A DNA stretch of 64,000 nucleotides from Antarcticirhabdus aurantiaca (GTDB lineage: Bacteria; Pseudomonadota; Alphaproteobacteria; Rhizobiales; Rhizobiaceae). Each line of letters starts with the position of its first letter. Position 1 is the stretch's first letter. The translations under genes and the position numbers were made by a program. The stretch lies in the NCBI RefSeq assembly GCF_009765365.1, contig NZ_VTOM01000016.1:62001-126000 (forward strand). The letters run 5' to 3'. The notes under the pieces were generated by a model that was not told the DNA's origin, did no database searches, and saw only the letters and a program-made list of their open reading frames with translations. Shown here one piece after another: positions 31,017 through 44,597 of the stretch.

Positions 31017-34000
31017 TCATCCCACACCCGGGGCCGGGACGCCGTCCCTGTACCGCCTGAACCGCTCGTGTTGAAGGCGGGCGAGGATCCGCCAGAGCGG
31101 GAGCGGCATCGGCTCGGCGAGAGACCTCAGGCGATTGACGTCGAACTCCCATTGCAGGAGACGCCTGCGCCTCTCGTCCTCCTCCAGCTCGGTGTTCTCC
31201 ACGAAGGTGCGGTTCATCTTCGCGCGCTCCAGCCGGAGCCGCAGGCCGGCCCGGACCCGCCGCCCGAGGCCGACGAGCAGCGCGTCCGCCTCCGCCAGGA
31301 ACGCCTCGGCGATTCGCAGGCGTGTCGCCAGGTTGTCGCCGTTGCTCAGGAGCCGGAGCATGGTGGCCTCGAGGACGATCTGGGCCGAGCGCTCCCTGCT
31401 GAAGCGGAACAGGTTCCGCGAAAGTCCGTCCAGGGTCCGTCGGGCCTGCTGGCTGAAGACGCTCGGTTCGTTGCCGGCACGGCACCGCTTGGCCGCAGAG
31501 CGACGTCCCTCAAGCTTCAGGGCGACGCGCACGATCTGTCGGGCGGCGTTGCCGGACGCGAGGTAATGGATTCCGAGCGGATCCATCGAGAAGGTGGCGA
31601 GCCGCAGTTGCTCGGACAGGACGAGCCGGGCGAACGACGAGCAGAAGAGTTCGTCGATGCGCTCCTCCAGCGTGTCCTCCGGACCCGACAGGAACGCCCT
31701 CATGATCGGCAGCCTGCCCTCGCCCGATGAACCGACGTCCGCCGGGCGGTTGAGCTTGCCGGCCGCCCCCGCAAGGTCCGCGACGGTCGCCCCGAGCTCG
31801 CCGAGGCGGGCATAGACGTCGCTGATCTCGTGGAGGACCGCCGCCGCGCTTCGGCCGTCCCCGAGGCGAGCCGCGACCTCGCCGATCTCGGGGGGCATCG
31901 CGAAGGCGTTGGGGGGCAGTCTCGGCGTGGCGGTCCCGAGTCTCGGGTCCGGCGGCCTCAGCACGGCCAGGTACCTGCGGGCCTGCCGCTCCAGCGCCTC
32001 GTCCAGCGCCGCCTTGAGCCCCTCGCCGTCGCCGCACGCCGTGAGCGCGCGCGAGATGCGGCTCTCGACGGCCGCGGCATCGATGCTCTCGCCGCTCAGG
32101 AGCCTGATCTCGAACAGCCGCTTGAAGGCCCCGTGCGGGATCTCCGGTCCGAGGGAGGCCCGGGCTGACGAGGTTCCGACATCCGGCGCGGACAGGAGGG
32201 TCCCCTCGGCCGTCGGCACCTCGCCGACCGCGAGGTAGCTCTGCGCGAGGGCGGCCCGGTGGTCCGCGGGAATGTCGGCGAAGCCCCTTCCGAGCCGCCC
32301 CATCCACTCGACCAGCCCCGCGCCCATGGGCGGAGCCGGGTCCGGCCGGATGGCCTTCGGCCAGAGCTGCCAGGGTTCGTCGAAGTAGGTGAGGATGTCC
32401 CCCTTCAACTCGTCGAGGCCGTAAAGCCGCGACAGGTTCCACGCTGGGGGGTTCTCGATCAATCTCCGATAGCAGAAGGCGTAGAGATACAGCCAGAACT
32501 GCGAGGGCCTCGAGGAGGTCACCAACGACCGGGTGCCGAACTCGAGGTCGTCGTCGACCGACATCGCGCCGGACGCGTCGATGGACACGGGGATGCTCTG
32601 GAGGCCGCTGTAGATCACCGAGAGCATGCGCCGCCACGGCCGGATCGACTGGAGGCCCGTGTTGTCGAGGTGTCGGAGGGAGATCGTCTGCTGGGTCAGC
32701 GCGTCCTCGGCGAGGAGGCGGTGGACGGCGTGGAAGTCCCGCCGGGAAAGCCGCCTTGCGGCCGCGTCGCGCGCGAGGAGCTTCGTCTCCGGGAACAGGT
32801 AGTCGACCGACCGGGCGGACGTGTCGTCGCCGTCCGTGGCCGACAGGCCGTACTCGAGCGGGTGGGACGATCCACCCTTCGGGGAGGTCCCGTCGAGGCC
32901 CTCGAAGGCGTCGTTGCGCACCAGCCCGAGGATGGGAAGGGCGTGCCCGCACAGGCGGTCGATCTCCGCCGCCAGCTCCCCCCGCCCCTCGCTCGCGGCC
33001 ATCTCCGGCAGCACCGTCCACGGGACGGTGCGCCCGGCCCGCGCGAGGCGGCGCAGCGTGCCTGGCCGCAAGCCGTCCGGGGTCATCGACACGACGAGTG
33101 CGATCTCCAGCCAGAGGGGCGAACGCTCGGCAAGGATCGCGAGGAAGGCCTCGACCGCTTTGTCGACAATGACGAGGCGGCGCCCGCTGAAGCGCCGGAC
33201 GAGCTCGTCTACGCGCGCGGGGAACCTGTCGGGATCGAGTTCCAGCGCGACGCTCAGGACCGCCTCGACGAGGTTGATGGCGTCCGTGCCGTCCGACTTG
33301 AAACCGTCGGCTTGCGAGACGCGCCGCAGGGCGTGCCCGATGGTGTCGCCGTCCCTTCCGTCGCCCGTCGGCGGGTGCACCCGGTTCCTGTCGACCGCGC
33401 CCGACCACTCCGCCCCGTCGAGGATGGGCAGGCGGAACGTCTGGGGCGAGACGGCTCCCGGCACCCGGGCCAACCGCTTGAGGCGGACCTCGTCGAGGCG
33501 CTCGTTGGACGTCACCACGATCCGGTTGTCGCGGAACGTCGCCAGGTCCAGGGTCGGGTCCCCGCCCATCGGCGGCTCGAGAAGGCGCGCCCAGAGCGAG
33601 TCGAGGTAGTCGTCGGCGATCCTGCGTTCCAGCAGCGTCATCCGGTCGTCGACGTGGTGACCGTCGAAGACGAGGATCGCGGGCCGCTCGGCGAGGGAGA
33701 GCCGGATGCGATGGACCACGTCAAACAGGCCATCGGCATCCGACATCGGCGCGCCGCCCCCGGCATCCCCGCTGTCCCGCCCCTCTGCGAAGGCGCGCAG
33801 GCGGCCCAGCACCTGCGAGATGTTGAGGATCTCGAACCCGCCCGAAGCGGTCCGCGTCCGCGTCGGCAGGAGGAGGGTCCTCCTCTCCTCCCGCGCCAGG
33901 TCGCCGACCCACCGCGCGCAGGCGGAGAGCCCGAACCAGAGGCCCTTGCCGTGGATGTTGACGAAGGTCGGCTTCCCGGCCCCCTTCGCGAGCGCGCCCT

Positions 34001-34625
34001 CCACCCATGCGGCGAAACCCGCGCGATCGGGTGCCGACATGAGGAAGTCCCCACCGCCCCTTCCACCGCTCCCCGCGCCCGCCGCCTCCACGGTCGGCGG
34101 ATCCTGCGACCCGTCGACGGCCCCGGCATCCCCGCGCAACCAGGCGACATAGGCGTCGATCGCGTCTGGTCCGACGAACGGGCGCCCGAACATGGCCCGC
34201 TCGGTCTCCTGATCCAACGAGGGAAGCCCGCGGCGCCTCGCCACGAGGGTCGAGATGCCGCGCTCGAACCTCCGGAGCTTGAAGCCGCCGACGCGATGAT
34301 GGGCGATCTGGACGATCTTCTGGATGTTGCCCCCGTGCGTCGGCATCCGCCGCTGCCTGCGCTCGTCCGGCTCGAGCTTGCGGGCCTCCCTCGCCACGTC
34401 GCCAAAGAAGGTGCCGCGCTGCTCGCCGACGAGGGCCTCGATGCAGAGGAGGCGCGGGATGATCCCGAGATCGCCTCCCGTGGCCATCAGCAGCCCCAGG
34501 GGTTTGCGGCAGACGATCCGCGCGCCACCCGCCTCCACCTCGAGCGGCTTCTCCCCGAGGCTCTCGGGAAAGCCCCTGCGCGCGAGCTCGGCCCACAGGA
34601 GACGCACGTCATCGAGATCGGCCAT
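31017..34625 (-). CDS. Large (1,202 aa) STAND/AAA-like protein, divergent from the secretion-like row
   Basis: I do not recognise the family. Residues about 215-420 look like a P-loop NTPase core: a strand-turn FVNIHGKGLWFGLSA sits where Walker A is expected but lacks the GxxGxGK[ST] pattern; a strand PAILVFDGHHVDD resembles Walker B; RIVVTSNERLDEV resembles sensor 1. The N-terminal 200 residues are basic with LFFGDVAREARKL-like helices; the C-terminal 700 are helical and repeat-like. There is no signal peptide or membrane helix. ATG 34625 starts MADLDDVRLLWAEL; the upstream codons have no protein character. It diverges from the DUF4407 gene across 277 bp. A large sensor or scaffold is possible; this is inference. 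Confidence 0.75.
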   Translation of the reverse strand: MADLDDVRLLWAELARRGFPESLGEKPLEVEAGGARIVCRKPLGLLMATGGDLGIIPRLLCIEALVGEQRGTFFGDVAREARKLEPDERRQRRMPTHGGNIQKIVQIAHHRVGGFKLRRFERGISTLVARRRGLPSLDQETERAMFGRPFVGPDAIDAYVAWLRGDAGAVDGSQDPPTVEAAGAGSGGRGGGDFLMSAPDRAGFAAWVEGALAKGAGKPTFVNIHGKGLWFGLSACARWVGDLAREERRTLLLPTRTRTASGGFEILNISQVLGRLRAFAEGRDSGDAGGGAPMSDADGLFDVVHRIRLSLAERPAILVFDGHHVDDRMTLLERRIADDYLDSLWARLLEPPMGGDPTLDLATFRDNRIVVTSNERLDEVRLKRLARVPGAVSPQTFRLPILDGAEWSGAVDRNRVHPPTGDGRDGDTIGHALRRVSQADGFKSDGTDAINLVEAVLSVALELDPDRFPARVDELVRRFSGRRLVIVDKAVEAFLAILAERSPLWLEIALVVSMTPDGLRPGTLRRLARAGRTVPWTVLPEMAASEGRGELAAEIDRLCGHALPILGLVRNDAFEGLDGTSPKGGSSHPLEYGLSATDGDDTSARSVDYLFPETKLLARDAAARRLSRRDFHAVHRLLAEDALTQQTISLRHLDNTGLQSIRPWRRMLSVIYSGLQSIPVSIDASGAMSVDDDLEFGTRSLVTSSRPSQFWLYLYAFCYRRLIENPPAWNLSRLYGLDELKGDILTYFDEPWQLWPKAIRPDPAPPMGAGLVEWMGRLGRGFADIPADHRAALAQSYLAVGEVPTAEGTLLSAPDVGTSSARASLGPEIPHGAFKRLFEIRLLSGESIDAAAVESRISRALTACGDGEGLKAALDEALERQARRYLAVLRPPDPRLGTATPRLPPNAFAMPPEIGEVAARLGDGRSAAAVLHEISDVYARLGELGATVADLAGAAGKLNRPADVGSSGEGRLPIMRAFLSGPEDTLEERIDELFCSSFARLVLSEQLRLATFSMDPLGIHYLASGNAARQIVRVALKLEGRRSAAKRCRAGNEPSVFSQQARRTLDGLSRNLFRFSRERSAQIVLEATMLRLLSNGDNLATRLRIAEAFLAEADALLVGLGRRVRAGLRLRLERAKMNRTFVENTELEEDERRRRLLQWEFDVNRLRSLAEPMPLPLWRILARLQHERFRRYRDGVPAPGVG

Positions 34626-34902
34626 GGCGGCACCCGGCGAGGTGGAGACGTCGCACCTTACCCTACGTCCGGTCCGCGGCAAGCGCGTCGGTACGATCGG
34701 TACGGATTTCCCGCCGGAGCCGCCCGGTCGCGGAAAGCGGACGCGCGAAAGGTACGGACAGTACGTTGAGATCGCCGCGCCGCCGGCCGGGACGCGAAGG
34801 TACCCGCCGAACCGACGAATCTTAACGGATTACCGACGATATCGGACGACGCGGCCCCGCGGTCCGCCGATGATGCGGCCATCGAAGACCAAGGAGGTCG
34901 AG
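34626..34902. promoter_or_regulatory. Divergent promoter region of the toxin/ATPase island
   Basis: This gap must drive both the 1,202-residue protein gene (minus) and the seven-gene row (plus). It is less GC-rich near 34790-34850. No named sigma or operator motif was recognised. GGAGG lies a few bases before the ATG at 34903. Confidence 0.5.
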
Positions 34903-36264
34903 ATGGCGAAAAGGGTAGACGATACGACTGCTCACATCTGGGGGCATTCCCCCGAGGATCTGAGGAACGCGTCCTTCGGCGAGCGCTCGAAGGCGAGACT
35001 GTTCACCGGCACGCTCCTCCTGGGAGGGGCCTTCCACGCAACCGTCACGGCCTTCTGCTTGCAGGGGCTCGGCCTGTCGCTCGCTGCGTCGGTCGCCACC
35101 GGTACCCTGAGCAGCCTGCTCTGGATGAGCACCGACCTGACGATCGTCCGCGTGGAGCGGGAGCACAGGGCGGCCAAGGAGCACTGGGAGGTCGCGGGCG
35201 GCGCGCCTCCGACACCGCCGGGACCGGCGAGATACGTCAGGTACGCGGCGGCCTTCGTCTACATGGCGGGCATCGGGGTCGGCGGCACCATCCAGTTCAT
35301 GGACGGCAGCATCGACCAGCGCCGCGCCGAGATGCAGGAGGCCATCGACGAGCCGTACAGGACCGCTGCGGAGCGCGAGTTCGGCAAGATACGCGCGTCC
35401 GCCGAGGCGGCCGAGACCTCCGCCGTCGCGGAACTCGGGTCCTTCGACGCCGGGGAGGCGGAAGCCGCCTCGGCCCATGGGTCCGCCATGGAGGCGCACC
35501 TGGGCGAGGCCCGGCGCCTGACCGCGGCGAGGTCCGCCCTTGAGCAGCAATGGGACGCCGTCAGCGCGGACGTGGCGAGGCATCGGGCGCTGGCGGCCTG
35601 CGAGGTGGAGGGCGTCTCCGCCAACCCGCTCTGCGAGGGCGCCACGGGGGCCGCCGGTCCCGGCGGCAACTTCAGGCTCGCGACGCTGGCGGCCGAGGCG
35701 GGCGAGGCCCGCCTCCGGGAGATCGACGGGCGGATCGCGGAGACGAAGGCGGCTCTGACCTCCCTCGCCCCTCCGGTGGCGCCGGAACCGGATCACGCTC
35801 GGCGGGACCGGCTCGTCGCGGACGTGAGGGCGGCCGCCGCCGCCAAGGCGGAGACGATCGAGGGCGGGAACGCCTTCGTTGAGGCCGCCGTCGCCGGAAA
35901 CCCCGGCCGGCGCGTCCTCACCGACAACCTGTTCACGAGGATCTCGATCCTCGGCGACCTCTTCGCCGAGTCCTGGGCCTTCAAGCTGTACGCGTTCCTC
36001 CTGGAGGCCGGCATCGTCGCCGTGGAGCTCACCGTCCTCATGGTGGGCGGGATCGGCAGGCCGGGTCTGCTGGACCTCGCGGCCGAGCACCGGCGGCGGG
36101 CCGGGCTGCTGCGGCTGGCCAAGGATTCACTCGGCCTCGCCGCCGACATCGCGGCCGAGCGCAACAACGTCGTCTTCATGGACAAGTTCCGCCGCGAGAC
36201 CGAGGCGGACGGCTTCACGATCTTCGGGCGCGGCGACGGGGATGGTCCCCCTGCCGCAGAGTGA
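34903..36264 (+). CDS. DUF4407-like four-helix membrane protein
   Basis: 453 residues. Two membrane helices lie at about 28-75 and a third at about 110-133. A long Ala/Glu-rich coiled-coil region spans about 135-360, and a fourth helix lies at about 365-390, before a cytosolic tail. This TM-TM-TM-coiled-coil-TM plan matches DUF4407 proteins, whose function is unknown. It is the first gene of the row and the only polytopic membrane protein in the island, so it is the natural candidate for an anchor or channel component. ATG 34903 has GGAGG before it. The next gene starts 14 bp after its stop. Confidence 0.75.
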   Translation: MAKRVDDTTAHIWGHSPEDLRNASFGERSKARLFTGTLLLGGAFHATVTAFCLQGLGLSLAASVATGTLSSLLWMSTDLTIVRVEREHRAAKEHWEVAGGAPPTPPGPARYVRYAAAFVYMAGIGVGGTIQFMDGSIDQRRAEMQEAIDEPYRTAAEREFGKIRASAEAAETSAVAELGSFDAGEAEAASAHGSAMEAHLGEARRLTAARSALEQQWDAVSADVARHRALAACEVEGVSANPLCEGATGAAGPGGNFRLATLAAEAGEARLREIDGRIAETKAALTSLAPPVAPEPDHARRDRLVADVRAAAAAKAETIEGGNAFVEAAVAGNPGRRVLTDNLFTRISILGDLFAESWAFKLYAFLLEAGIVAVELTVLMVGGIGRPGLLDLAAEHRRRAGLLRLAKDSLGLAADIAAERNNVVFMDKFRRETEADGFTIFGRGDGDGPPAAE

Positions 36265-36278
36265 GAAGGAGAAGGCAG

Positions 36279-36851
36279 ATGAACAACGACCGACTCGGCG
36301 GCGGCGGGCGTGGGACGCTCGTCACCGTCCGCGGGCAGGGAAGCCATGACCTCGCCCGTGCCCCCGTCGCCAGGCGCGACTCGGGCCTCGGCTACTTCGA
36401 GAACAGGCGGAACAACCGCCAGCGGGCGCTGGACCACGCCGAGATCGTGCGCGAGGTCGACCGCCGCAAGTGGGAGCAGGCCGCGGACGTGGAGCTCCTG
36501 GACGGCGAGGCCCGGGCGGAGGAAGCCAAGCTCCTCATCGTGGGGCGCGTCTTCGAGGCGACAGGCGAGGCGTCCGAGCAGATCCGCGCGCTCGGTGGCG
36601 ACACCAAGCGGAGGATCGTCGAGGCGACGGGCGACTCCGTCGTCGCGCTGGGCGAGGCGGGAACCAGGATCGACGCCAAGATCTCGTCGTCGGACATGCA
36701 TCCCGCCGTGAAGGGCTTCGCCCAGAACGCCATGGCCGGGATGATGGCCGCGGCTGCCGAGGGGATCGTCGCCAGCGGGTACGAGGCGATCAGGAACGTC
36801 GACCGCAAGGTCGACAGCATCAACTCCTCGCGCTTCGCGCCGAAGGACTGA
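36279..36851 (+). CDS. Helical hypothetical protein of the toxin/ATPase island
   Basis: 190 residues, no recognised family. It has a flexible Gly/Arg-rich N-terminus, then a long charged helix (NRRNNRQRALDHAEIVREVD and RRKWEQAADVELLDG), then a more hydrophobic Ala/Gly/Met-rich segment (FAQNAMAGMMAAAAEGIVAS) near residue 150. It could be a membrane-associated or pore-type helical protein. ATG 36279 has AGAAGGAGAAGG upstream. A strong hairpin follows its stop. Confidence 0.7.
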   Translation: MNNDRLGGGGRGTLVTVRGQGSHDLARAPVARRDSGLGYFENRRNNRQRALDHAEIVREVDRRKWEQAADVELLDGEARAEEAKLLIVGRVFEATGEASEQIRALGGDTKRRIVEATGDSVVALGEAGTRIDAKISSSDMHPAVKGFAQNAMAGMMAAAAEGIVASGYEAIRNVDRKVDSINSSRFAPKD

Positions 36852-36855
36852 GACG

Positions 36856-36883
36856 TGCGGGGCGGACGATGTGCCGCCCCGCA
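36856..36883 (+). terminator. Strong hairpin between genes 2 and 3 of the island row
   Basis: TGCGGGGCGG, an eight-base loop, CCGCCCCGCA: a perfect ten-base GC stem, four bases past the stop codon. Only two T residues follow, so it may attenuate or protect RNA ends rather than fully terminate. Confidence 0.5.
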
Positions 36884-36936
36884 TTCCCGCTGCCGGAAAC
36901 GGCCCGGCAGTCCCACCGGAACGAAGGATCCGAACC

Positions 36937-37776
36937 ATGACCGGACCAGCGGATACCCTGCCAAGCCCTCCCACCGCACCACACATCGCGGGCGCTCTCT
37001 CCCGCCGCGTAGCGGTCATGGCGCGCGCGATCGCCCAGATGCTCCGCGTTGCGGGCGCCATGCTCCTGTTCTGGGCCGGAGGTCCGGCCGCGGCGGGTCC
37101 GTCGGTGACGGTGACGGCGAACGGCCGCCACCCGTCGCAGCTCCAGTGGGACGGCGTGCGCGTCTACTGGCTGCCCTTCGACGTCAGCACGATCTCGGCC
37201 GCCGACCTCGTGGCCTGCGCCGTGCAGGACCGGGTGGCGTGCTCCGGAGTGCCCTGCCCCGACGCCGATCGATGCGAGTTCGAGCTCCCGTCCGTGGACG
37301 CGTCGCGGCCGTTCGCCCTCATCGTTTATGACTGGGACGGGCTGCTCGAGGACGAGGTCTCGGCCGCCGCCCGCGGCCTCTCGGTCGGTTCCGACGCAGT
37401 GGCCTCTCTCAAGGGCCTCGTCGCCGACCCGGCCTGGGGCGCGCGCGCCGACGGCGCCGCCGACGCGGCCTCGGGCCTTCTCGCGGCGGCCTCGGACGCG
37501 CTCGGCGAGGCGAACGGGCGGCGCCTCGAGTTCATGGACGCGGCCATCCTCGTCCCCTCGCCCGACATGGCGGACCAGCCCGCCCTCGCCGCGCTCGTCC
37601 GCGAGCACGTGGGGGCCGCCGCCCGCCTCGACGGCTCGGTCCTCGGCGTGCGCCGCCTCCGGGGCCCGATCGCAACCCTCACCTACGCCGACTGCGTGTG
37701 GCCGAGCCCGGCCTGCGCCCTCGCCTACGCCGACATCGAGTTCAAGGAGAAGGAGAAGGACCATGAAGCGGACTAG
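36937..37776 (+). CDS. Sec-exported hypothetical protein of the island
   Basis: 279 residues. A hydrophobic segment (AQMLRVAGAMLLFWAGGPAAAG, about residues 31-52) acts as a signal peptide; MARAI at about 28 could be the true start. The mature part has paired cysteines (ACAVQDRVACSGVPCPDADRCEF, about 105-130) suggesting disulfides, so a periplasmic or secreted location. A Cys pair also lies near the end (DCVWPSPAC). No family was recognised. Its 3' end overlaps the toxin gene start by 14 bp, implying coupled translation. Confidence 0.7.
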   Translation: MTGPADTLPSPPTAPHIAGALSRRVAVMARAIAQMLRVAGAMLLFWAGGPAAAGPSVTVTANGRHPSQLQWDGVRVYWLPFDVSTISAADLVACAVQDRVACSGVPCPDADRCEFELPSVDASRPFALIVYDWDGLLEDEVSAAARGLSVGSDAVASLKGLVADPAWGARADGAADAASGLLAAASDALGEANGRRLEFMDAAILVPSPDMADQPALAALVREHVGAAARLDGSVLGVRRLRGPIATLTYADCVWPSPACALAYADIEFKEKEKDHEAD

Positions 37777-38431
37777 ACGCGAATTCCTCGTCGGCGCGGC
37801 CATCCTCGGAGCGGCGGCCCTGTTCGGGTTCGGCGGGGACGCCCGGGCGGCGCCCCGGGGCGGGAGTGGCCCCAAGGTCATCACTCCCCCGACCGTGAGG
37901 ACGGCGAGGAGCTCGGCGGTGCGGGCCTCGGCCGCCGCGGGGGGACACCTCCACAAGCACGTCGGCGCCTCGCCCGCGTACCTCGCCTCCCGCACGCAGT
38001 CGATGGACATGAGGTTCTCCTTCGAGGCCGCGGCGAGGCGGGGGCGGAAGGGACGGAAGGCGGCCGAGGCGCTCTCCCAGTTCAGGGCGCGGCCCTCCCG
38101 GATCAGCTCGTTCCGCAACGGCCCGACAATGGACCGGATCTACGAGCAGGCGATGCGCCGCGAGAGGGCGCAGGTCGCGGCCTGGGCACGGACCGCGAAG
38201 CCGGGCGACAGCTATAGGCTCGGGTTCTCGTCCGCAAAGCCCGTCGGCACGGTCTACACGACGATGCCGGGATCCGGCACGGGCCGCCACGCGCCTGCTT
38301 CGCGGGGCGAGTTCATCCTCCGCAAGGGCGGCTCCGCGGGTGTCTACCCGCACACGGCCAAGCTCTTCGTCGGACGCGAGGCCCCGACGCGCCGGGCGGG
38401 CGCCGCGACCGACCGCAAGGCGGCAAGGTGA
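37763..38431 (+). CDS. Tat-type exported protein with RNase A-like (CdiA-CT) toxin domain
   Basis: 222 residues. The N-terminus MKRTRREFLVGAAILGAAAL is a twin-arginine signal (TRREFL). From about residue 55 the sequence follows the bacterial RNase A-like toxin pattern: GGHLHKHVGASPAYLASR with candidate catalytic histidines, then RISSFRNGPTMDRIYEQAM, VAAWART, YRLGFSSAKPVGTVY and GEFILRKGG, AGVYPHTAKLF. Such domains usually sit at the end of CdiA or other polymorphic toxins; here the domain stands alone behind a signal peptide. The next gene looks like its immunity gene, 12 bp downstream. ATG 37763 is inside the end of the preceding gene. The nuclease assignment is by pattern only. Confidence 0.7.
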   Translation: MKRTRREFLVGAAILGAAALFGFGGDARAAPRGGSGPKVITPPTVRTARSSAVRASAAAGGHLHKHVGASPAYLASRTQSMDMRFSFEAAARRGRKGRKAAEALSQFRARPSRISSFRNGPTMDRIYEQAMRRERAQVAAWARTAKPGDSYRLGFSSAKPVGTVYTTMPGSGTGRHAPASRGEFILRKGGSAGVYPHTAKLFVGREAPTRRAGAATDRKAAR

Positions 38432-38443
38432 GGGAGAGGCGAG

Positions 38444-38716
38444 ATGGAAATCGGACGCGAACTGCTCGAGCGCCTTTCCGGCGAGGTGTTCCACGAGACG
38501 GCGGACCTCGACGGCGACCTCGGTCCCACGCTCGACGCCTTCCTCGACACCCTCGACCCGACGGAGCGACGCGCCCTGCGAGACGAGCTCGTTTCGCTGG
38601 CGGGGGCGGGCGAGGAGGAGCGGCGGGAGCGCCTCGACGAGATCGGCTTCGCCTGGGAGTTCGACGACGGGGCGGGCTTCCTCTCGACCCTCGCGCAGGT
38701 CCTCGACGACGAGTGA
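38444..38716 (+). CDS. CdiI-type immunity protein
   Basis: 90 residues, acidic. The pattern EVFHETADLDGDLGPTLDAF, then RRALRDELVSLAGAGEEERR and LDEIGFAWEFDDGAGFLSTL, matches the small CdiI_1 type immunity family (FHQDWDLDG.. EEALDAFL.. ALRAELDALL.. LGCGY). There is no signal peptide, so it would act in the cytosol. Its place directly after the RNase A-like toxin gene is the standard toxin-immunity order. A ribosome-binding GGGAGAGGCG precedes the ATG. Confidence 0.7.
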   Translation: MEIGRELLERLSGEVFHETADLDGDLGPTLDAFLDTLDPTERRALRDELVSLAGAGEEERRERLDEIGFAWEFDDGAGFLSTLAQVLDDE

Positions 38717-38836
38717 GGCCAAGGGGGCGGGTTCCGACCCGTCTCCACGACCGCCCCTCAGCGGATCGCCGCAGGCCAGCGGCGGTCCGGCCAACGGCAG
38801 CTTTCCGCACGAACGGGCACGACGAAGGGAGAACGC

Positions 38837-39583
38837 ATGATGCCGCCCCTCAAGCCGCCGCTCCGCGGGATCGGCGAACCGCCCCCCTGGCCCGCGCCGC
38901 CACTCTATCCCGGCGACTGGCTCGACCTGCCCGACGATGTGGTGGCGCGGACGGGGAGCCTCCTGGAGCGCTTCGCGGACGCGCGGGCCTTCCCGAACCT
39001 GACGGGACGCTTCCTGCGCATGCGGGCCCTGCGCCTGCCCTTCTATCCCGGCTGGACGCTCCTGGAGATCCTGGGCCGGCCGCTCGGCAAGCGCCTCGGC
39101 GTGGCCCGCGTCCTCCTTGGAAGCGAGAGGCCCCTGCTCCTCAACGGATCGGCGGGCATCCTCCACATGGTCAACTCCAAACATCTCGAGGGCCTCGACG
39201 ACCCGGCGACGGTCCGGCACTACCTGCGCTTCTTCTGTAGCTGCGTCCACGGCGAGGAAGGGGGCGGCACCCGCTTCCAGGTCGTCGAGGGCATGGACGA
39301 GATCCCGCCGGAGATGGTGCGTCCCGGCAAGGTCGAGACCGTGTCCGCTGCGGTCCGCCCGATCGAGGAGGTCGACGGCCCGTCCGCCCTCCTCGCGACG
39401 CTCGTCTACGGAGGGAGCCTCTTCCGCTCGCTCATGAGGATCGACTCCTCGGGAATGGTGGTGATGGAGGACGACGAGCCGATCGCGGAGGACGTGTTCC
39501 GCCTGCGCGAGTGCTTCGACGGACCCTGGCAGATGCACCCCCACGAGATCGTGCCCCACCAACCCAAACCGGAGACGGAGTGA
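38837..39583 (+). CDS. Hypothetical protein of the island, before the ATPase gene
   Basis: 248 residues, Pro-rich N-terminus (MMPPLKPPLRGIGEPPPWPA), then a globular alpha/beta part with LLLNGSAGILHMVNSKHLEG and RHYLRFFCSCVHGEEGGGTRF. There is no signal peptide or membrane segment. No family was recognised; it could be an adaptor or chaperone for the ATPase. ATG 38837 has GGGAGAA upstream. Its stop lies six bases before the ATPase ATG. Confidence 0.7.
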   Translation: MMPPLKPPLRGIGEPPPWPAPPLYPGDWLDLPDDVVARTGSLLERFADARAFPNLTGRFLRMRALRLPFYPGWTLLEILGRPLGKRLGVARVLLGSERPLLLNGSAGILHMVNSKHLEGLDDPATVRHYLRFFCSCVHGEEGGGTRFQVVEGMDEIPPEMVRPGKVETVSAAVRPIEEVDGPSALLATLVYGGSLFRSLMRIDSSGMVVMEDDEPIAEDVFRLRECFDGPWQMHPHEIVPHQPKPETE

Positions 39584-39588
39584 TCGCC

Positions 39589-41055
39589 ATGGCAGACGGA
39601 ACGAACGGGCCGGGGACGCGCCGGGGCGTGATCGTGGGGCGAGAGGCCGCCGGGAGGCCGTCCATCGGCTTCGCGACCCGGCCGCGGCCGGAGGGTCCCG
39701 GCACGGCGGTCGGGGCGCCGCTCGACGGGCACGCCATCGCGATCGCCCCGACGGGCGCCGGCAAGCTGCTCTCCCTCGTCGTCCCCTGGACGCTCGGCTG
39801 GCCCGACGAGGGATCGGTCCTCGTGGTCGACCCGAAGGGCGAGGCGGCGGCGGTGACGGCGCGCGCCCGGGCACGGCGCGGCTCCGCCGTCCACGTCGTC
39901 GACCCGTTCCGCGTCAGCGGCCTGCGCCCATCGCCGTGCAACCCACTCCGGTTCATCGATCCCGACAGCGAGGACCTCCTCGACGACGCGAGAGCCGTGG
40001 CGGAGATGATGCTTCCTGAGCGTCACGACGTGCGGGACGCGTTCTGGCGCAGCCGGGCGCTTTGGTTCGTGACGACGGCGATCGTCCACGTCATGAGGGA
40101 GCGCAAGCCGCCGGAGCGGACCCTCGTGTCGGTTCGGGACGTCGTGTTCGGGTGGGCGCGGTCCATGAGGCGCGGCGAGCAGTTGCCGGGGGCGGCGGCG
40201 ACGGCCCTGAAGCTTGAGGGCGACGATCCCGAGGTGAGGCGCGCCGCGGAGACGATGGAGCTCGGGTCGCCGGAGACGGTCGGCGGGATCCTCCACTACG
40301 CGCTCGAGGCGGTCGGCTTCATCCGCGGGGAGCCCGTGGAGCGCAGCCTCGAGTGCGGGGGCGTGGACTTCGAGTCCTTCGCGAGGGGCGATCCGACGAC
40401 CTGCTTCCTCGTCCTGCCGCCCCACCTCCTGAAAACCCACGCGCCGCTGCTGCGCCTGTGGTCGTGGGCGTTCCTTTCGTCGGTCCAGCGGCGGACCCGC
40501 CCGCCCGCGGGCAGGACGCTGTTCGTCGTCGACGAGGCCGCCCAGCTCGGTCACTACGGCCCCCTCCTCACGGCGGTCACGTTGCTTCGCGGCTACGGCC
40601 TGTCCACCCTCTCGCTCTGGCAGGACGGGGCGCAGCTCCGCTCCGCCTATCCCGACGATTGGAGGACGATGGTCAACAACTGCCGGACGCTCGCCTGCTT
40701 CGGGGCGCGGACCGATGCGGGCTGGCGCGACGCGCTCGACACGCTGGGGATGGCGGGGTGCACCCGGTCGGAGGCGGAGGGACGGATCCTCGTGCTCTCG
40801 GACGGGCGGGAGCGGCTGCTCGACCGCATCGACTACCGGACGGATCCGCTCTTCGAGGGCGAGTTCGACCCGAACCCGTTCCACGAGGCCGACGCGGGAC
40901 CGATCGTCAGGCCGCGGACGAAGCGGCGCAAGCCGCGACGCCCGGCGGCCCGCCCCGGAGGCACGAGGAGACGCGTCGACCCCGACCTCGCCCGCGAGTA
41001 CGATGCCGTCAAGGCGCAGGTGATGGCGCTCTGGGAGCCGGAAGCCGTGTTCTGA
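39589..41055 (+). CDS. Soluble VirD4/TraG-like coupling ATPase
   Basis: 488 residues. AIAIAPTGAGKLLSLVVPW holds the Walker A (GAGK at about 56-59). VLVVDPKGEAAAVTARAR is the TraG/VirD4 signature after it. LFVVDEAAQLGHYGPLL (about 312-328) is Walker B, followed by LWQDGAQLRSAYP and NNCRTLACFGARTD as in type IV coupling proteins. The N-terminal membrane helices of VirD4 are absent. The all-alpha domain is short. Coupling ATPases pass DNA or protein substrates to a type IV channel; no relaxase or VirB genes are present here. ATG 39589 with GGAG eight bases upstream was chosen; GTG 39580 overlaps the previous stop. Confidence 0.85.
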   Translation: MADGTNGPGTRRGVIVGREAAGRPSIGFATRPRPEGPGTAVGAPLDGHAIAIAPTGAGKLLSLVVPWTLGWPDEGSVLVVDPKGEAAAVTARARARRGSAVHVVDPFRVSGLRPSPCNPLRFIDPDSEDLLDDARAVAEMMLPERHDVRDAFWRSRALWFVTTAIVHVMRERKPPERTLVSVRDVVFGWARSMRRGEQLPGAAATALKLEGDDPEVRRAAETMELGSPETVGGILHYALEAVGFIRGEPVERSLECGGVDFESFARGDPTTCFLVLPPHLLKTHAPLLRLWSWAFLSSVQRRTRPPAGRTLFVVDEAAQLGHYGPLLTAVTLLRGYGLSTLSLWQDGAQLRSAYPDDWRTMVNNCRTLACFGARTDAGWRDALDTLGMAGCTRSEAEGRILVLSDGRERLLDRIDYRTDPLFEGEFDPNPFHEADAGPIVRPRTKRRKPRRPAARPGGTRRRVDPDLAREYDAVKAQVMALWEPEAVF

Positions 41056-41244: not shown

Positions 41245-42297
41245 ATGACGGTTGCACCAAACGACTTTCGCCGGGACAAACCCAAGATATGGGTCGGGAT
41301 GAACACGTTGAATCAAAGCCGCCCCTCCGCGAGGAATGAGCAGCTGTCACAAGCTTTGATCGACCCCGATAAGATCGCCTTCCTTGCGCTGGCTTCGATC
41401 GAAGGTGTAGGCGCGGAAAGCCTCGCCTCCATTGCAGGCAGCGGGCAGACGTTTGAGTCGGTCTTGTCTGTCGAAATCCAGCATGAAGCGATCGAGCTTT
41501 TGCGGCGGCACGGCGCTCGGATCGACAGCGCCTCTTGGGCTGATTGGCGGAGCGTACGGGCTCGAGCCATTGCAAGAGCTCGCCACTGGGCTGATGGTTT
41601 TGCCCGAGACGGCACACACGTCGTGTTCCGGCATGAAGATGCGTTTCCGAAACGCCTGCTGGATCTGTCCAGTCCTCCGTACTGGCTGTTCGTCAGGGGT
41701 AGCCTATCGGCTCTGTCGGTACCGTCGATTTCCGTCGTCGGCACGCGAAACCCGAGCGAGGACGGCCGATGGCTGACGAAGTACGTTGGTGCAAGCCTGT
41801 CGATCTGGAACGCGGCAACCGTGAGCGGCTTGGCGGTCGGCGTTGACCAACTCGCCCACGAAGCTTCCATCCGCGCTGGCGTTCCGACTGTTGCCGTCCT
41901 CGGATCAGGAATTCTCTCGGACCATGCCCCGGGCGCAGGAGATCTACGCGGACGCATCATCGAAGGCGGGGGCGCGATCGCGACGGAGTACCTGCCTGAT
42001 GAAGGCCACAGTGCGAAGAACCTCGTTCGCCGAAACCGACTTCAGGCGGCGCTCGGAAGGGTTCTCATACCAACCGAGTGGAATTCAAGGATTGGAACCG
42101 CCCATACGGTAAGGTTCGCCACCCAGCTCCGAAGGCCGATAGCGCTCCTTCGACTGCCGGACTGGGATGAAGGCCGCGTAACGCCGACGATGGGTTGCGG
42201 CCTGGAGACCGGACGCATGTTTACGATCCCCGGAGAGGATGAGGCATTCCGCAGCTTCGTTCGAGACGCACTTGCCGGGCCTTTGGGATCGGCTTGA
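41245..42297 (+). CDS. DprA/Smf-like protein
   Basis: 350 residues. A helix-hairpin-helix-like segment (FLALASIEGVGAESLASIAG, about 47-66) precedes a Rossmann-type DprA domain: ISVVGTRNPSEDG, then VSGLAVGVDQLAHEASIRAG, TVAVLGSGI, and LVRRNRLQAALGRVLIPTEW. DprA loads RecA on incoming single-stranded DNA. The C-terminal winged helix of housekeeping DprA is missing, so this may be an accessory member. Base composition is lower in GC than its neighbours. It is bracketed by inverted 76-bp repeats, suggesting that it moved as a unit. ATG 41245 was used; ATG 41299 is possible. Confidence 0.82.
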   Translation: MTVAPNDFRRDKPKIWVGMNTLNQSRPSARNEQLSQALIDPDKIAFLALASIEGVGAESLASIAGSGQTFESVLSVEIQHEAIELLRRHGARIDSASWADWRSVRARAIARARHWADGFARDGTHVVFRHEDAFPKRLLDLSSPPYWLFVRGSLSALSVPSISVVGTRNPSEDGRWLTKYVGASLSIWNAATVSGLAVGVDQLAHEASIRAGVPTVAVLGSGILSDHAPGAGDLRGRIIEGGGAIATEYLPDEGHSAKNLVRRNRLQAALGRVLIPTEWNSRIGTAHTVRFATQLRRPIALLRLPDWDEGRVTPTMGCGLETGRMFTIPGEDEAFRSFVRDALAGPLGSA

Positions 42298-43034: not shown

Positions 43035-43328
43035 CTAGGCCTCCGTCGCCGCGGATGGACTTCCCATGGCGACAGGTTTCGAACTGCCGGATACCCCGAC
43101 GAGGATCGTCCCGTCGCCGGCATCGAGAAAGATGGCTCCCGCCATCTCGAGCGCGGTCCTGATGCGGGCGACGCTCGACGCCCGCGGGACGTGGCCGCTT
43201 CCCTCGAACTCGTTGAGCAGGTTCCTGCCGCACTCGGCCAGGCGGCACAGCTCCGTCTGCGAGAGCCCGAGCATCGCGCGGGCGCCGCGGCAGGCGATCC
43301 CGTCGATGCGTCCGGCGGGGCGCAGCAT
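43035..43328 (-). CDS. XRE-family DNA-binding protein
   Basis: 97 residues with a helix-turn-helix: ACRGARAMLGLSQTELCRLA, then ECGRNLLNEFEGSGHVPRAS, VARIRTALEMAGAIFLDAGDG. This is the layout of single-domain XRE proteins common near mobile DNA. The start is uncertain; the frame is open well upstream and ATG 43328 begins the domain. The upstream extension overlaps a roughly 90-bp direct repeat also found at 50803. Confidence 0.75.
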   Translation of the reverse strand: MLRPAGRIDGIACRGARAMLGLSQTELCRLAECGRNLLNEFEGSGHVPRASSVARIRTALEMAGAIFLDAGDGTILVGVSGSSKPVAMGSPSAATEA

Positions 43329-43447
43329 TCCCGGAAAGGGCGAGGAGCGCTCGCGAACGTCGGCATCCACGCGGGACGACCCGGCCCCGAACGTGGACAG
43401 GATGCCGTCTTTCGTCAAAGGCCCGCATCCGGTGTCCACCGGGCGTG

Positions 43448-43537
43448 GCGCCGGGCGCCGACGCTTCCGGCGAACGTCGACCAGTTGTGCCTCGTAGGAT
43501 TCATCGCTCCAAGCGTTCCGTCGGCTTGCGGCGCCAC
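43448..43537. repeat. Direct repeat, copy A (~90 bp, imperfect)
   Basis: GTGCCTCGTAGGATTCATCG and flanks are nearly identical to 50803-50893. The match spans GCGCCGGGC through CGGCGAACG to CGCTCCAAGCGTTCCGTC. On the minus strand it keeps an ATGAATCCTACGAGGCACAA core. Confidence 0.7.
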
Positions 43538-43871
43538 TGCCCGTGTCCGCCGGACCTTCACGAGTCCGCCCCAGCCCCGTAGGCCGCGGCAGGGCCATAG
43601 TGCCCCAAGCACGGCGCGGCGTCGACCCGGCACGGTCGCAAGGCGGGCCGCGACGCCCGGCCGCTGGTCGAATCCTTCGTCCAATCCTTTCCCGCTGACC
43701 GCGCGGCCCGCGGCGGCGGTCCTTCCGCCCTCCCGTCCACCTGGCCCGAACGGAGCGTGGGTTGACCCCGCCTCCCCGTACGGCAACGCGAGCGCCCGAA
43801 GGGGCGGTCGTCCCGCGTCGGCGGAGCCGACGCGCACCGGGAATGCCGACGATCGAGGCGATGCCGGCTTC
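43538..43871. other. No recognisable gene
   Basis: Arg/Pro-rich frames on both strands; nothing supported. Confidence 0.4.
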
Positions 43872-44240
43872 CTAAGCCATTCCGGTGCGCAGGGAGGGTG
43901 CGGTCGCGCTGTCGGGATCGCCGGGGCTCTCCTCGACCCCGCCGTATCCGCCGATCGGGAGGTCGGGGTCGATGTCCGCGTCGGCGTCGAACCGAAGCAG
44001 CCAGCAGCCGCTGCCGCCCGCCGCCGTCGCGGCGGCGAGGAACGGCTCCGAGAAGCCGAAGCGGCGCAGCCGCGCCAGGGTCTCGTCCCGGACGTCCTCG
44101 GACGCCAGCGACGCGGTCGAGACGATCCACCCGTGTTCGTACGGGATGACCGTCACGGGATGGTCGGCCCCGTCCAGGATCGCCGCATCCCCGTCGGTGA
44201 GGTGGCCGGTCGAGATGTCCTTGAAGCTCAGAATGGTCAT
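43872..44240 (-). CDS. DUF5983-like protein
   Basis: 122 residues. SFKDISTGHLTDGDAAILDG, then VTVIPYEHGWIVSTASLAS and GCWLLRFDADADIDPDLP, match the pattern of DUF5983 proteins found on plasmids and integrative elements (STAHLT, YGWFV, WLRFD, LP). No function is known. There is no signal or membrane segment. Confidence 0.65.
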   Translation of the reverse strand: MTILSFKDISTGHLTDGDAAILDGADHPVTVIPYEHGWIVSTASLASEDVRDETLARLRRFGFSEPFLAAATAAGGSGCWLLRFDADADIDPDLPIGGYGGVEESPGDPDSATAPSLRTGMA

Positions 44241-44597
44241 GCGCGCTCCCCCGTCTGCCACCTCAGGGTCGCCCAGGGGAATGTGGCCCGCAAGCGGCGC
44301 CGCACGGAAGCGAACGGGCCACGGGACTTCGACTCCGCCAATCGAAGGCCATCCCGCATTGACCGTTGGCGCACCGCCTCCGCTTCGGTGCAAGCGGCCT
44401 TCGATCTCACCGCCCCCCCACGCGACCGCGCGCGGCAACGCGCGCCGTCCGCGCCCGATCCGGGATGCGGCAATGGCCGGACCCGCAGCCCCGCCGCACA
44501 AGCCGCAGGACCCGGCCGGAGCGCCGAATGCGCGGAGATCGACCACGCATCGTGAACAGCCCTTTCTCTCCGAAGCCGACCGCGGATCGGCCCGGGG
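44241..44597. other. No recognisable gene
   Basis: Nothing supported between the DUF5983-like gene and the response regulator. Confidence 0.45.

What the first reader, a model, noticed from the sequence alone, without database searches (positions are those of the whole stretch)
31017..41055. Candidate undescribed toxin-export island built on a lone VirD4-like ATPase
Seen: a 1,202-residue protein diverges from seven closely spaced genes (DUF4407-like membrane protein, helical protein, Sec-exported protein, Tat-exported RNase A-like protein, CdiI-type immunity protein, unknown protein, soluble VirD4/TraG-like ATPase), several with overlapping or near-touching ends. Known: VirD4 ATPases feed substrates to type IV channels; CdiA-CT RNase A domains kill neighbours and need an immunity partner. 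No relaxase, VirB gene or CdiB lies in the window. Inference: the ATPase, membrane protein and two exported proteins may form a simple delivery or release system for this toxin.
Basis: partly seen in the sequence, partly recalled or inferred. Interest (0 to 1): 0.88.

Follow-up and report, generated by a model that had tools for sequence, protein, structure and literature searches.

The report
Toxin island with a soluble VirD4-like motor
A bacterial gene cluster holds an RNA-cutting-type toxin gene, its likely antidote gene and a DNA-pump-like ATPase that lacks a membrane anchor, in a genome where two core secretion-channel genes were not found; the ATPase and its small partner recur in root-nodule bacteria beside immune-receptor-like genes, so it looks more like an internal conflict or defence module than a secretion system.

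Summary
For it: the VirD4-like ATPase (H) stands alone. It has no membrane anchor, VirB4 and VirB10 models find nothing in the genome, and H groups with other anchor-less relatives, away from anchored TraG proteins beside relaxases. Against it: the toxin (E) has its own Tat-like signal, and no linkage of ATPase, DUF4407 protein and toxin was found outside the window's near-identical sister strain. The parts have separate relatives: A on a Rhodovulum plasmid, E among RNase A-type toxins some of which have CdiI_2 immunity genes, and G-H as a two-gene unit. G-H is the new result: an unnamed ~230-residue domain (G) lies directly upstream of H here and on three Sinorhizobium plasmids (27% and 38% identity). 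There the neighbours include an nSTAND1-ankyrin protein, ending in another G domain in two of the three, and a patatin lipase gene. I infer that G is an adaptor linking a soluble VirD4-type motor to conflict effectors. The mechanism is unproven, one independent lineage supports the pair, and G is usually found without a VirD4 gene. Interest is moderate.

The parts
31017..34625 (-). A, 1,202-aa protein of no known family, divergent from the rest; one relative (26% identity) on a Rhodovulum plasmid. Degenerate NTPase-like motifs by eye only.
   Evidence: profile comparison with STAND-type proteins negative
34903..36264 (+). B, DUF4407 protein (453 aa), presumed membrane protein
   Evidence: PF14362 5.7e-14; one hydrophobic segment in the scan
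36279..36851 (+). C, 190-aa protein, no family (start 36261 GTG also possible)
37018..37776 (+). D, 252-aa protein, signal-peptide-like N-terminus by eye only, no family; start uncertain (36937 or 37018)
   Evidence: no segment flagged
37763..38431 (+). E, bacterial RNase A-type toxin with a Tat-like N-terminus (222 aa); His and Thr of the active site align, no Tyr at the Tyr position
   Evidence: PF18431 2e-6; alignment; residues from PMC9086364
38444..38716 (+). F, probable immunity protein of E (CdiI_2-like, below cut-off)
   Evidence: PF18593 1.1e-3; relatives
38837..39583 (+). G, unnamed ~230-aa domain; proposed adaptor, directly upstream of H
39589..41055 (+). H, VirD4/TraG-like ATPase without membrane anchor (488 aa)
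   Evidence: PF02534 1.4e-37; hydropathy scan; tree

Best explanation
The island is a composite of separately moving conflict modules, not a miniature type IV secretion system. Shown: (1) E and F have the family make-up of an RNase A-type toxin and a CdiI_2-like immunity protein, and E has a Tat-like signal. (2) G-H, an unnamed domain plus an anchor-less VirD4-like ATPase, recurs as a unit in Sinorhizobium; the window's genome has no VirB4 or VirB10 match. (3) On the Sinorhizobium plasmids the unit stands near an nSTAND1-ankyrin protein, ending in a G domain in two of the three, and a patatin lipase gene. Inferred: E leaves the cytoplasm by Tat while F protects the cytoplasm (as in barnase and barstar, a recalled analogy). 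H works inside the cell as a ring motor of the FtsK/HerA kind (family kinship recalled) on DNA or a bound protein. G ties H to a sensor or effector by G-G contact. The whole is a competition or defence locus. Not explained: how E would cross the outer membrane, and what A to D do.
For: G and H keep order, strand and near-touching ends at 27% and 38% identity in Sinorhizobium (gap 5 bp here, 3 bp in the two copies measured). H, two Sinorhizobium copies and a protein of G187 form a supported group (95/92, then 100/99), all four without a hydrophobic segment; 10 of the 13 rows outside it have one at the N-terminus, and traA is annotated beside six of them. VirB4 and VirB10: 0 matches in the genome, while 1 and 2 of 14 control genomes ring. 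Neighbours in S. meliloti 1132: nSTAND1 8e-36 with ankyrin repeats, patatin 5.6e-26, a DUF7779/TPR protein. The nSTAND1 protein ends in a G domain (BLASTP 3e-12 against the stand-alone Sinorhizobium G). A G domain also ends an AAA_16/TPR frame on a Thiodictyon plasmid. dN/dS between S. meliloti and S. medicae is 0.24 for H and 0.33 for G (own script). One relative of E is followed by two CdiI_2 genes over cut-off (L074), another by one just below (L088).
Against: G is usually without a VirD4 gene: 0 of 20 other alphaproteobacterial stretches of 19-20 kb around G, and neither of two further plasmid loci, held a frame matching the H profile at 1e-5; many stand-alone G genes sit among housekeeping-looking genes, by eye. 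The G tree neither proves nor rejects one origin for the window and Sinorhizobium G (p-AU 0.44), and puts the G domain of the nSTAND1 protein in the other half of the tree. In S. medicae T10 that G domain lies in a frame apart from the nSTAND1 frame. Branches at H are long (3.33, neighbour 3.74). A shows no significant STAND similarity, so no sensor is identified here. PADLOC names none of A to G as defence beyond a negligible hit for B (0.014), and H only weakly as mad8 (3.8e-5). The Tat-like signal is below both model cut-offs. F is below cut-off. One independent lineage supports the pair. No experiment.
Confidence: 0.45

Rival explanations
1. A minimal secretion device: H lacks an anchor but docks on the DUF4407 protein B as a split coupling protein and drives export of D and E.
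For: Coupling proteins without a transmembrane domain, which may or may not team up with a separate membrane protein, are a recognised class (PMC7431656, passages). B, D, E and H lie in one gene cluster. Tat-like signal of E is below model cut-offs.
Against: No VirB4/VirB10 match in the genome; E has a Tat-like signal of its own; B matches no frame in the Sinorhizobium G-H loci and only the own genus among 300 relatives. Anchor-deleted TrwB, PcfC and MobB were non-functional, although an anchor-deleted TcpA kept some transfer (PMC7431656, passages).
Confidence: 0.13
2. H is a leftover of a mobilisation region (decayed TraG) and the other genes are chance neighbours.
For: The genome holds two other TraG genes and one relaxase on small contigs.
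Against: H keeps Walker A and B by eye and coding signal; related proteins are anchor-less in two other lineages and under purifying selection in Sinorhizobium; its nearest rows are not the TraG proteins of its own genome.
Confidence: 0.1
3. Two unrelated modules in a defence/competition hotspot: A-F is one system (envelope plus toxin) and G-H another; they share only a location.
For: A has a relative on a Rhodovulum plasmid divergent from exported-looking and membrane genes, with no G or H match in that stretch; G-H occurs without A-F matches in Sinorhizobium; the next gene is ShosA/DprA-like.
Against: A to H share third-position GC, and F-G are only 120 bp apart. The DprA-like gene differs (0.66), so it is the likelier stranger.
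Confidence: 0.3

Closest known systems
VirD4/TraG type IV coupling proteins (PF02534), class without transmembrane domain
   Same: Nucleotide-binding domain with Walker A and B, TraG-D_C segment
   Different: No relaxase or channel gene recognised at the locus, no VirB4/VirB10 match in the genome; the recurring partner is G, with no hydrophobic segment in the scan
CdiA-CT/CdiI of Yersinia kristensenii (bacterial RNase A toxin and immunity)
   Same: E passes the RNAse_A_bac model; by alignment with five relatives the His and Thr are kept; small immunity-like gene directly downstream
   Different: E is a 222-aa protein with a Tat-like signal, not the end of a CdiA filament; no Tyr at the Tyr position; His and Thr lie outside the stretch the model matched
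NTP-dependent conflict systems with STAND sensors (PMC7159879; start of abstract and term look-up only)
   Same: The Sinorhizobium G-H loci have an nSTAND1-ankyrin protein and a patatin gene
   Different: VirD4, TraG, patatin and ankyrin do not occur in that paper's main text and HerA occurs once, in the references; no STAND protein is demonstrated in the window
MADS defence protein Mad8 (PADLOC model)
   Same: Weak match to H (3.8e-5)
   Different: No other MADS model matched the nine proteins scanned

Membership tests
Type IV secretion / conjugation coupling protein | Nucleotide-binding domain with Walker motifs | tested here: met
   PF02534 1.4e-37; motifs shared with the Sinorhizobium copy, by eye
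Type IV secretion / conjugation coupling protein | N-terminal transmembrane anchor (a class without it is recognised) | tested here: not met
   no hydrophobic segment in H; two in each of the genome's other TraG proteins
Type IV secretion / conjugation coupling protein | VirB4 and VirB10 channel genes in the genome | tested here: not met
   PF03135 and PF03743: 0 matches, controls ring in 1 and 2 of 14
Type IV secretion / conjugation coupling protein | Relaxase beside it | tested here: not met
   the only MobA_MobL match is on contig C41; other relaxase families not searched
Bacterial RNase A toxin family (PF18431) | Model match over cut-off | tested here: met
   29.0 bits against 27, 73 of 113 positions
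Bacterial RNase A toxin family (PF18431) | Active-site His, Arg, Thr, Tyr | tested here: inconclusive
   His and Thr align; the Tyr column holds Ala (Lys if the gap is closed); Arg not placed
CDI (CdiB/CdiA/CdiI) | Toxin at the end of a large CdiA exoprotein | tested here: not met
   E is a 222-aa protein
CDI (CdiB/CdiA/CdiI) | CdiI immunity gene downstream | tested here: inconclusive
   F: CdiI_2 20.1 bits, cut-off 26.7
CDI (CdiB/CdiA/CdiI) | CdiB outer-membrane transporter | not tested
   no CdiB search was run
STAND/NLR-like conflict system | STAND NTPase in the locus | tested here: inconclusive
   present near G-H in Sinorhizobium; A gives no Pfam hit and no profile support
DUF4407 | Model match over cut-off | tested here: met
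   52.5 bits against 31.3
G-H module (proposed here) | G directly upstream of an anchor-less VirD4-like gene | tested here: met
   window and three Sinorhizobium plasmids, on one of which H is annotated as two frames

The most novel reading that the evidence does not exclude
A soluble VirD4-type motor has been captured from conjugation into a new class of modular conflict system: the unnamed G domain works as a homotypic adaptor, like effector-associated domains, tying the motor to STAND/NLR-like sensors and to interchangeable effectors (patatin lipase in Sinorhizobium, an RNase A-type toxin here).
Probability: 0.22. Interest if true: 0.8.

Novelty: new variant of a known kind. Interest (0 to 1): 0.5.

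Why it matters
It separates a VirD4-type ATPase from any channel genes found and gives it a recurring, unnamed partner domain that is also found at the ends of immune-receptor-like proteins. If true, a conjugation motor has been reused inside cells, and the G domain becomes a marker for finding more such loci. It also warns against reading every lone VirD4 gene as a secretion system.

Tried and rejected
Tried without gain. (a) The membrane protein beside the Rhodovulum relative of A: similar place and topology by eye, but BLASTP E 1.1 and profile comparison negative, and Pfam does not call it DUF4407; not claimed as homologous. (b) A as a STAND NTPase: suggestive motifs by eye, no Pfam hit, hhalign against three STAND-type proteins negative (two of those three scored only 11.9% against each other, so the test is weak), and the glycine-lysine of its P-loop-like stretch is not kept in Rhodovulum. 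(c) Single-sequence structure models of A (residues 190-600) and G: mean pLDDT 34.9 and 32.6, useless, no fold search run. (d) PDB by sequence: nothing useful for A, G, E or F; H finds only Cag5 weakly (0.0034). (e) Paper searches (DUF4407; orphan or soluble VirD4; Mad8 and MADS; VirD4 with STAND and patatin): listings only, apart from passages of PMC7431656; no G-H-like pair seen. The library lacks most subscription journals and holds no preprints of bioRxiv. (f) Promoter and terminator scan uninformative. (g) PHROGs: one weak hit for B, none for the other seven proteins.

Rows dropped before counts: my script assumed that loci lie on the + strand, so 6 of 15 RNase A loci (L075, L077, L078, L083, L085, L086) were not read. 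In one search the two pieces of the split H on CP050559 were left out. In one search L055 (taken for a copy of L021), two L016 rows (taken for copies of L017) and one weak match under 40 bits (L062:11305-11895) were left out. 11 of the 33 G places other than the window's lie in none of the 20 stretches fetched.

Considered and rejected: that G-H linkage is general (G is widespread and usually without VirD4); that the second copy of the island (L007/G001) is independent support.
Full report
WHAT IS THERE. D and E overlap by 14 bp; 5 bp separate G and H. Third-position GC is 0.90-0.94 in all eight; the next gene, DprA/ShosA-like, has 0.66. A second genome of the same genus has the island, but over 21,464 bp the two differ at 2 positions, so it is not independent.

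IS IT A TYPE IV SYSTEM? H belongs to the VirD4/TraG family (PF02534 1.4e-37) and keeps its Walker motifs, by eye. The genome has no match to VirB4 (PF03135; the control rings in 1 of 14 genomes) or VirB10 (PF03743; in 2 of 14). It has one MobA_MobL relaxase on contig C41 and two 554-aa TraG proteins with N-terminal hydrophobic segments on contigs C39 and C40. I built a tree of 17 rows: 18 frames matching the H profile, less the two pieces of the split copy on CP050559, plus H. H joins the two other Sinorhizobium copies (95/92) and a protein of G187 (100/99). All four lack a hydrophobic segment (threshold 1.6), and no conjugation gene was recognised by eye among the 14 frames of the G187 contig. 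Of the 13 rows outside, 10 have a strong N-terminal segment; the three without are L103 (a short frame), L105 and L022, the last two beside relaxase-like frames by eye. In the annotated plasmid records traA stands beside TraG in six (L098, L099, L101, L102, L103, L104); L100 shows a mobilisation gene instead. Branches at H are long (3.33, and 3.74 for G187) and the program warns of it, so the grouping is fair, not firm. Coupling proteins without a transmembrane domain are a recognised class (PMC7431656, passages).

THE G-H PAIR. tblastn of H in 72,556 plasmids gives 1,405 records, the top three on Sinorhizobium plasmids at 38-40% identity. In all three a G relative lies directly upstream; the gap is 3 bp in the two copies measured, 5 bp in the window. 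BLASTP: G 27%, 3e-13; H 38%, 2e-91. Around them in S. meliloti 1132 lie a 1,650-aa nSTAND1-ankyrin protein (8e-36), a patatin (5.6e-26) and a DUF7779/TPR protein; no relaxase or VirB gene is named among the 19 annotated features or the 17 of S. meliloti RCAM1115; the S. medicae record has no annotation. The window's A to F match no frame at 1e-4 in these three loci. The nSTAND1 protein ends in a second G domain in the two S. meliloti records (BLASTP 3e-12 against the stand-alone Sinorhizobium G; 9e-4 against the window G); in S. medicae T10 that domain lies in a separate frame, and the patatin frame is interrupted by a transposase-like insertion, by eye. In RCAM1115 H is annotated as two overlapping frames. 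Between S. meliloti 1132 and S. medicae T10 dN/dS is 0.24 for H (515 codons) and 0.33 for G (241 codons) by my own counting script.

G ELSEWHERE. The G alignment finds 34 places in 23 of 337 alphaproteobacterial genomes, the own genome included. 31 of the 34 lie in frames of 202-288 residues, three in frames of 380, 664 and 676. I fetched 20 stretches holding 22 of the other 33 places: none has a frame matching the H profile at 1e-5, nor have the Thiodictyon and Tistrella plasmid loci. On the Thiodictyon plasmid the domain ends an AAA_16/TPR frame. Pfam and NCBIfam name it in none of the members tried. In a tree of 28 rows the window G falls in an open eight-row group with the stand-alone Sinorhizobium, the Thiodictyon and the Tistrella forms, among others; the G domain of the nSTAND1 protein falls outside it. 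Holding window and Sinorhizobium G together costs 0.60 log units (p-AU 0.44), so one origin is neither shown nor rejected. The H subfamily is rare: with the H pair profile 3 of 120 genomes of the phylum pass 1e-50, namely the own genome, a TraG with anchor (G259) and the relaxase-side frame of G722; with H alone 4 of 300 relatives pass 1e-40, two of them the own genus.

A TO F. A matches only the own genus among 300 relatives (E limit 1e-8), only the own genome among 337 of the class, and one plasmid, of Rhodovulum sp. P5, at 26%. There it is divergent from three genes, two with signal-like N-termini and one membrane protein by eye, but B and D show no significant similarity to the partners compared. 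B matches only the own genus among 300 (E limit 1e-5); DUF4407 as a family matches 4 of 101 relatives, over cut-off in 2, both the own genus. E: its family matches 10 of 201 relatives, 9 over cut-off; E itself finds nothing in plasmids. Of 15 RNase A loci my script read nine, two of them the window's own locus; of the other seven, five have a small frame directly downstream or overlapping on the same strand and two an in-frame extension. Of the six small frames tested, both behind the toxin of L074 match CdiI_2 over cut-off, one (L088) falls just below, three match nothing. In the alignment of E with five of these domains one His (two are kept) and the Thr align; the Tyr column holds Ala, or Lys if the gap is closed (residues H175, R186, T276, Y278 from PMC9086364, passages; their placing is mine). 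These residues lie outside the stretch that Pfam matched (98-168). E may be a divergent or weakened enzyme.

MECHANISM. Shown: the anatomy, the lack of VirB4 and VirB10 matches, the recurrence of G-H, its neighbours in Sinorhizobium, the family make-up of E and F. Inferred: E is exported by Tat and F guards the cytoplasm; H acts in the cytoplasm as a ring motor; G is an adaptor to a sensor or effector. Not explained: outer-membrane passage of E and the roles of A to D.

VERDICT. On present evidence not a simple toxin-export system, but a composite conflict island holding a rare G-H unit of which I found no description (searches, in open-licence papers only). B, E, F and H belong to or resemble known families; A, C, D and G have none. 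I call it a new variant of known kinds.

Noticed in passing
41245-42297: DprA-like gene matching the ShosA defence model (2.8e-67) directly after H, with lower third-position GC (0.66) than the island; a ShosT partner was not searched for.
   Followed up: partly
G000:C1:181560-181955 (L075): A second, stronger RNase A-type domain match (66.6 bits) in the same genome; its neighbourhood was not read.
   Followed up: no
L010, L011, L089 (contigs C39, C40, C41): Two 554-aa TraG proteins and one relaxase match on short contigs in a genome without VirB4 or VirB10 matches: perhaps mobilisable but not self-transmissible elements.
   Followed up: partly
L054-L073: The G domain is an unnamed alphaproteobacterial family, often a stand-alone ~210-aa gene; some copies sit beside hemE/hemH-like or yidC-like genes (names by eye).
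   Followed up: partly
L018:7311-14931: Rhodovulum plasmid relative of A, divergent from two exported-looking proteins and one membrane protein (by eye): similar layout to the window without sequence similarity of the partners.
   Followed up: partly
L019:2218-11057; L016:12100-13474: Sinorhizobium copies with breaks: patatin frame interrupted by a transposase-like insertion and G domain of the nSTAND1 protein in a separate frame in S. medicae T10; H annotated as two overlapping frames in S. meliloti RCAM1115.
   Followed up: partly
43035-44546: DUF5983 protein (43872-44546, 7.1e-15) and a protein with a sub-cut-off HTH match (43035-43598) downstream on the - strand.
   Followed up: no
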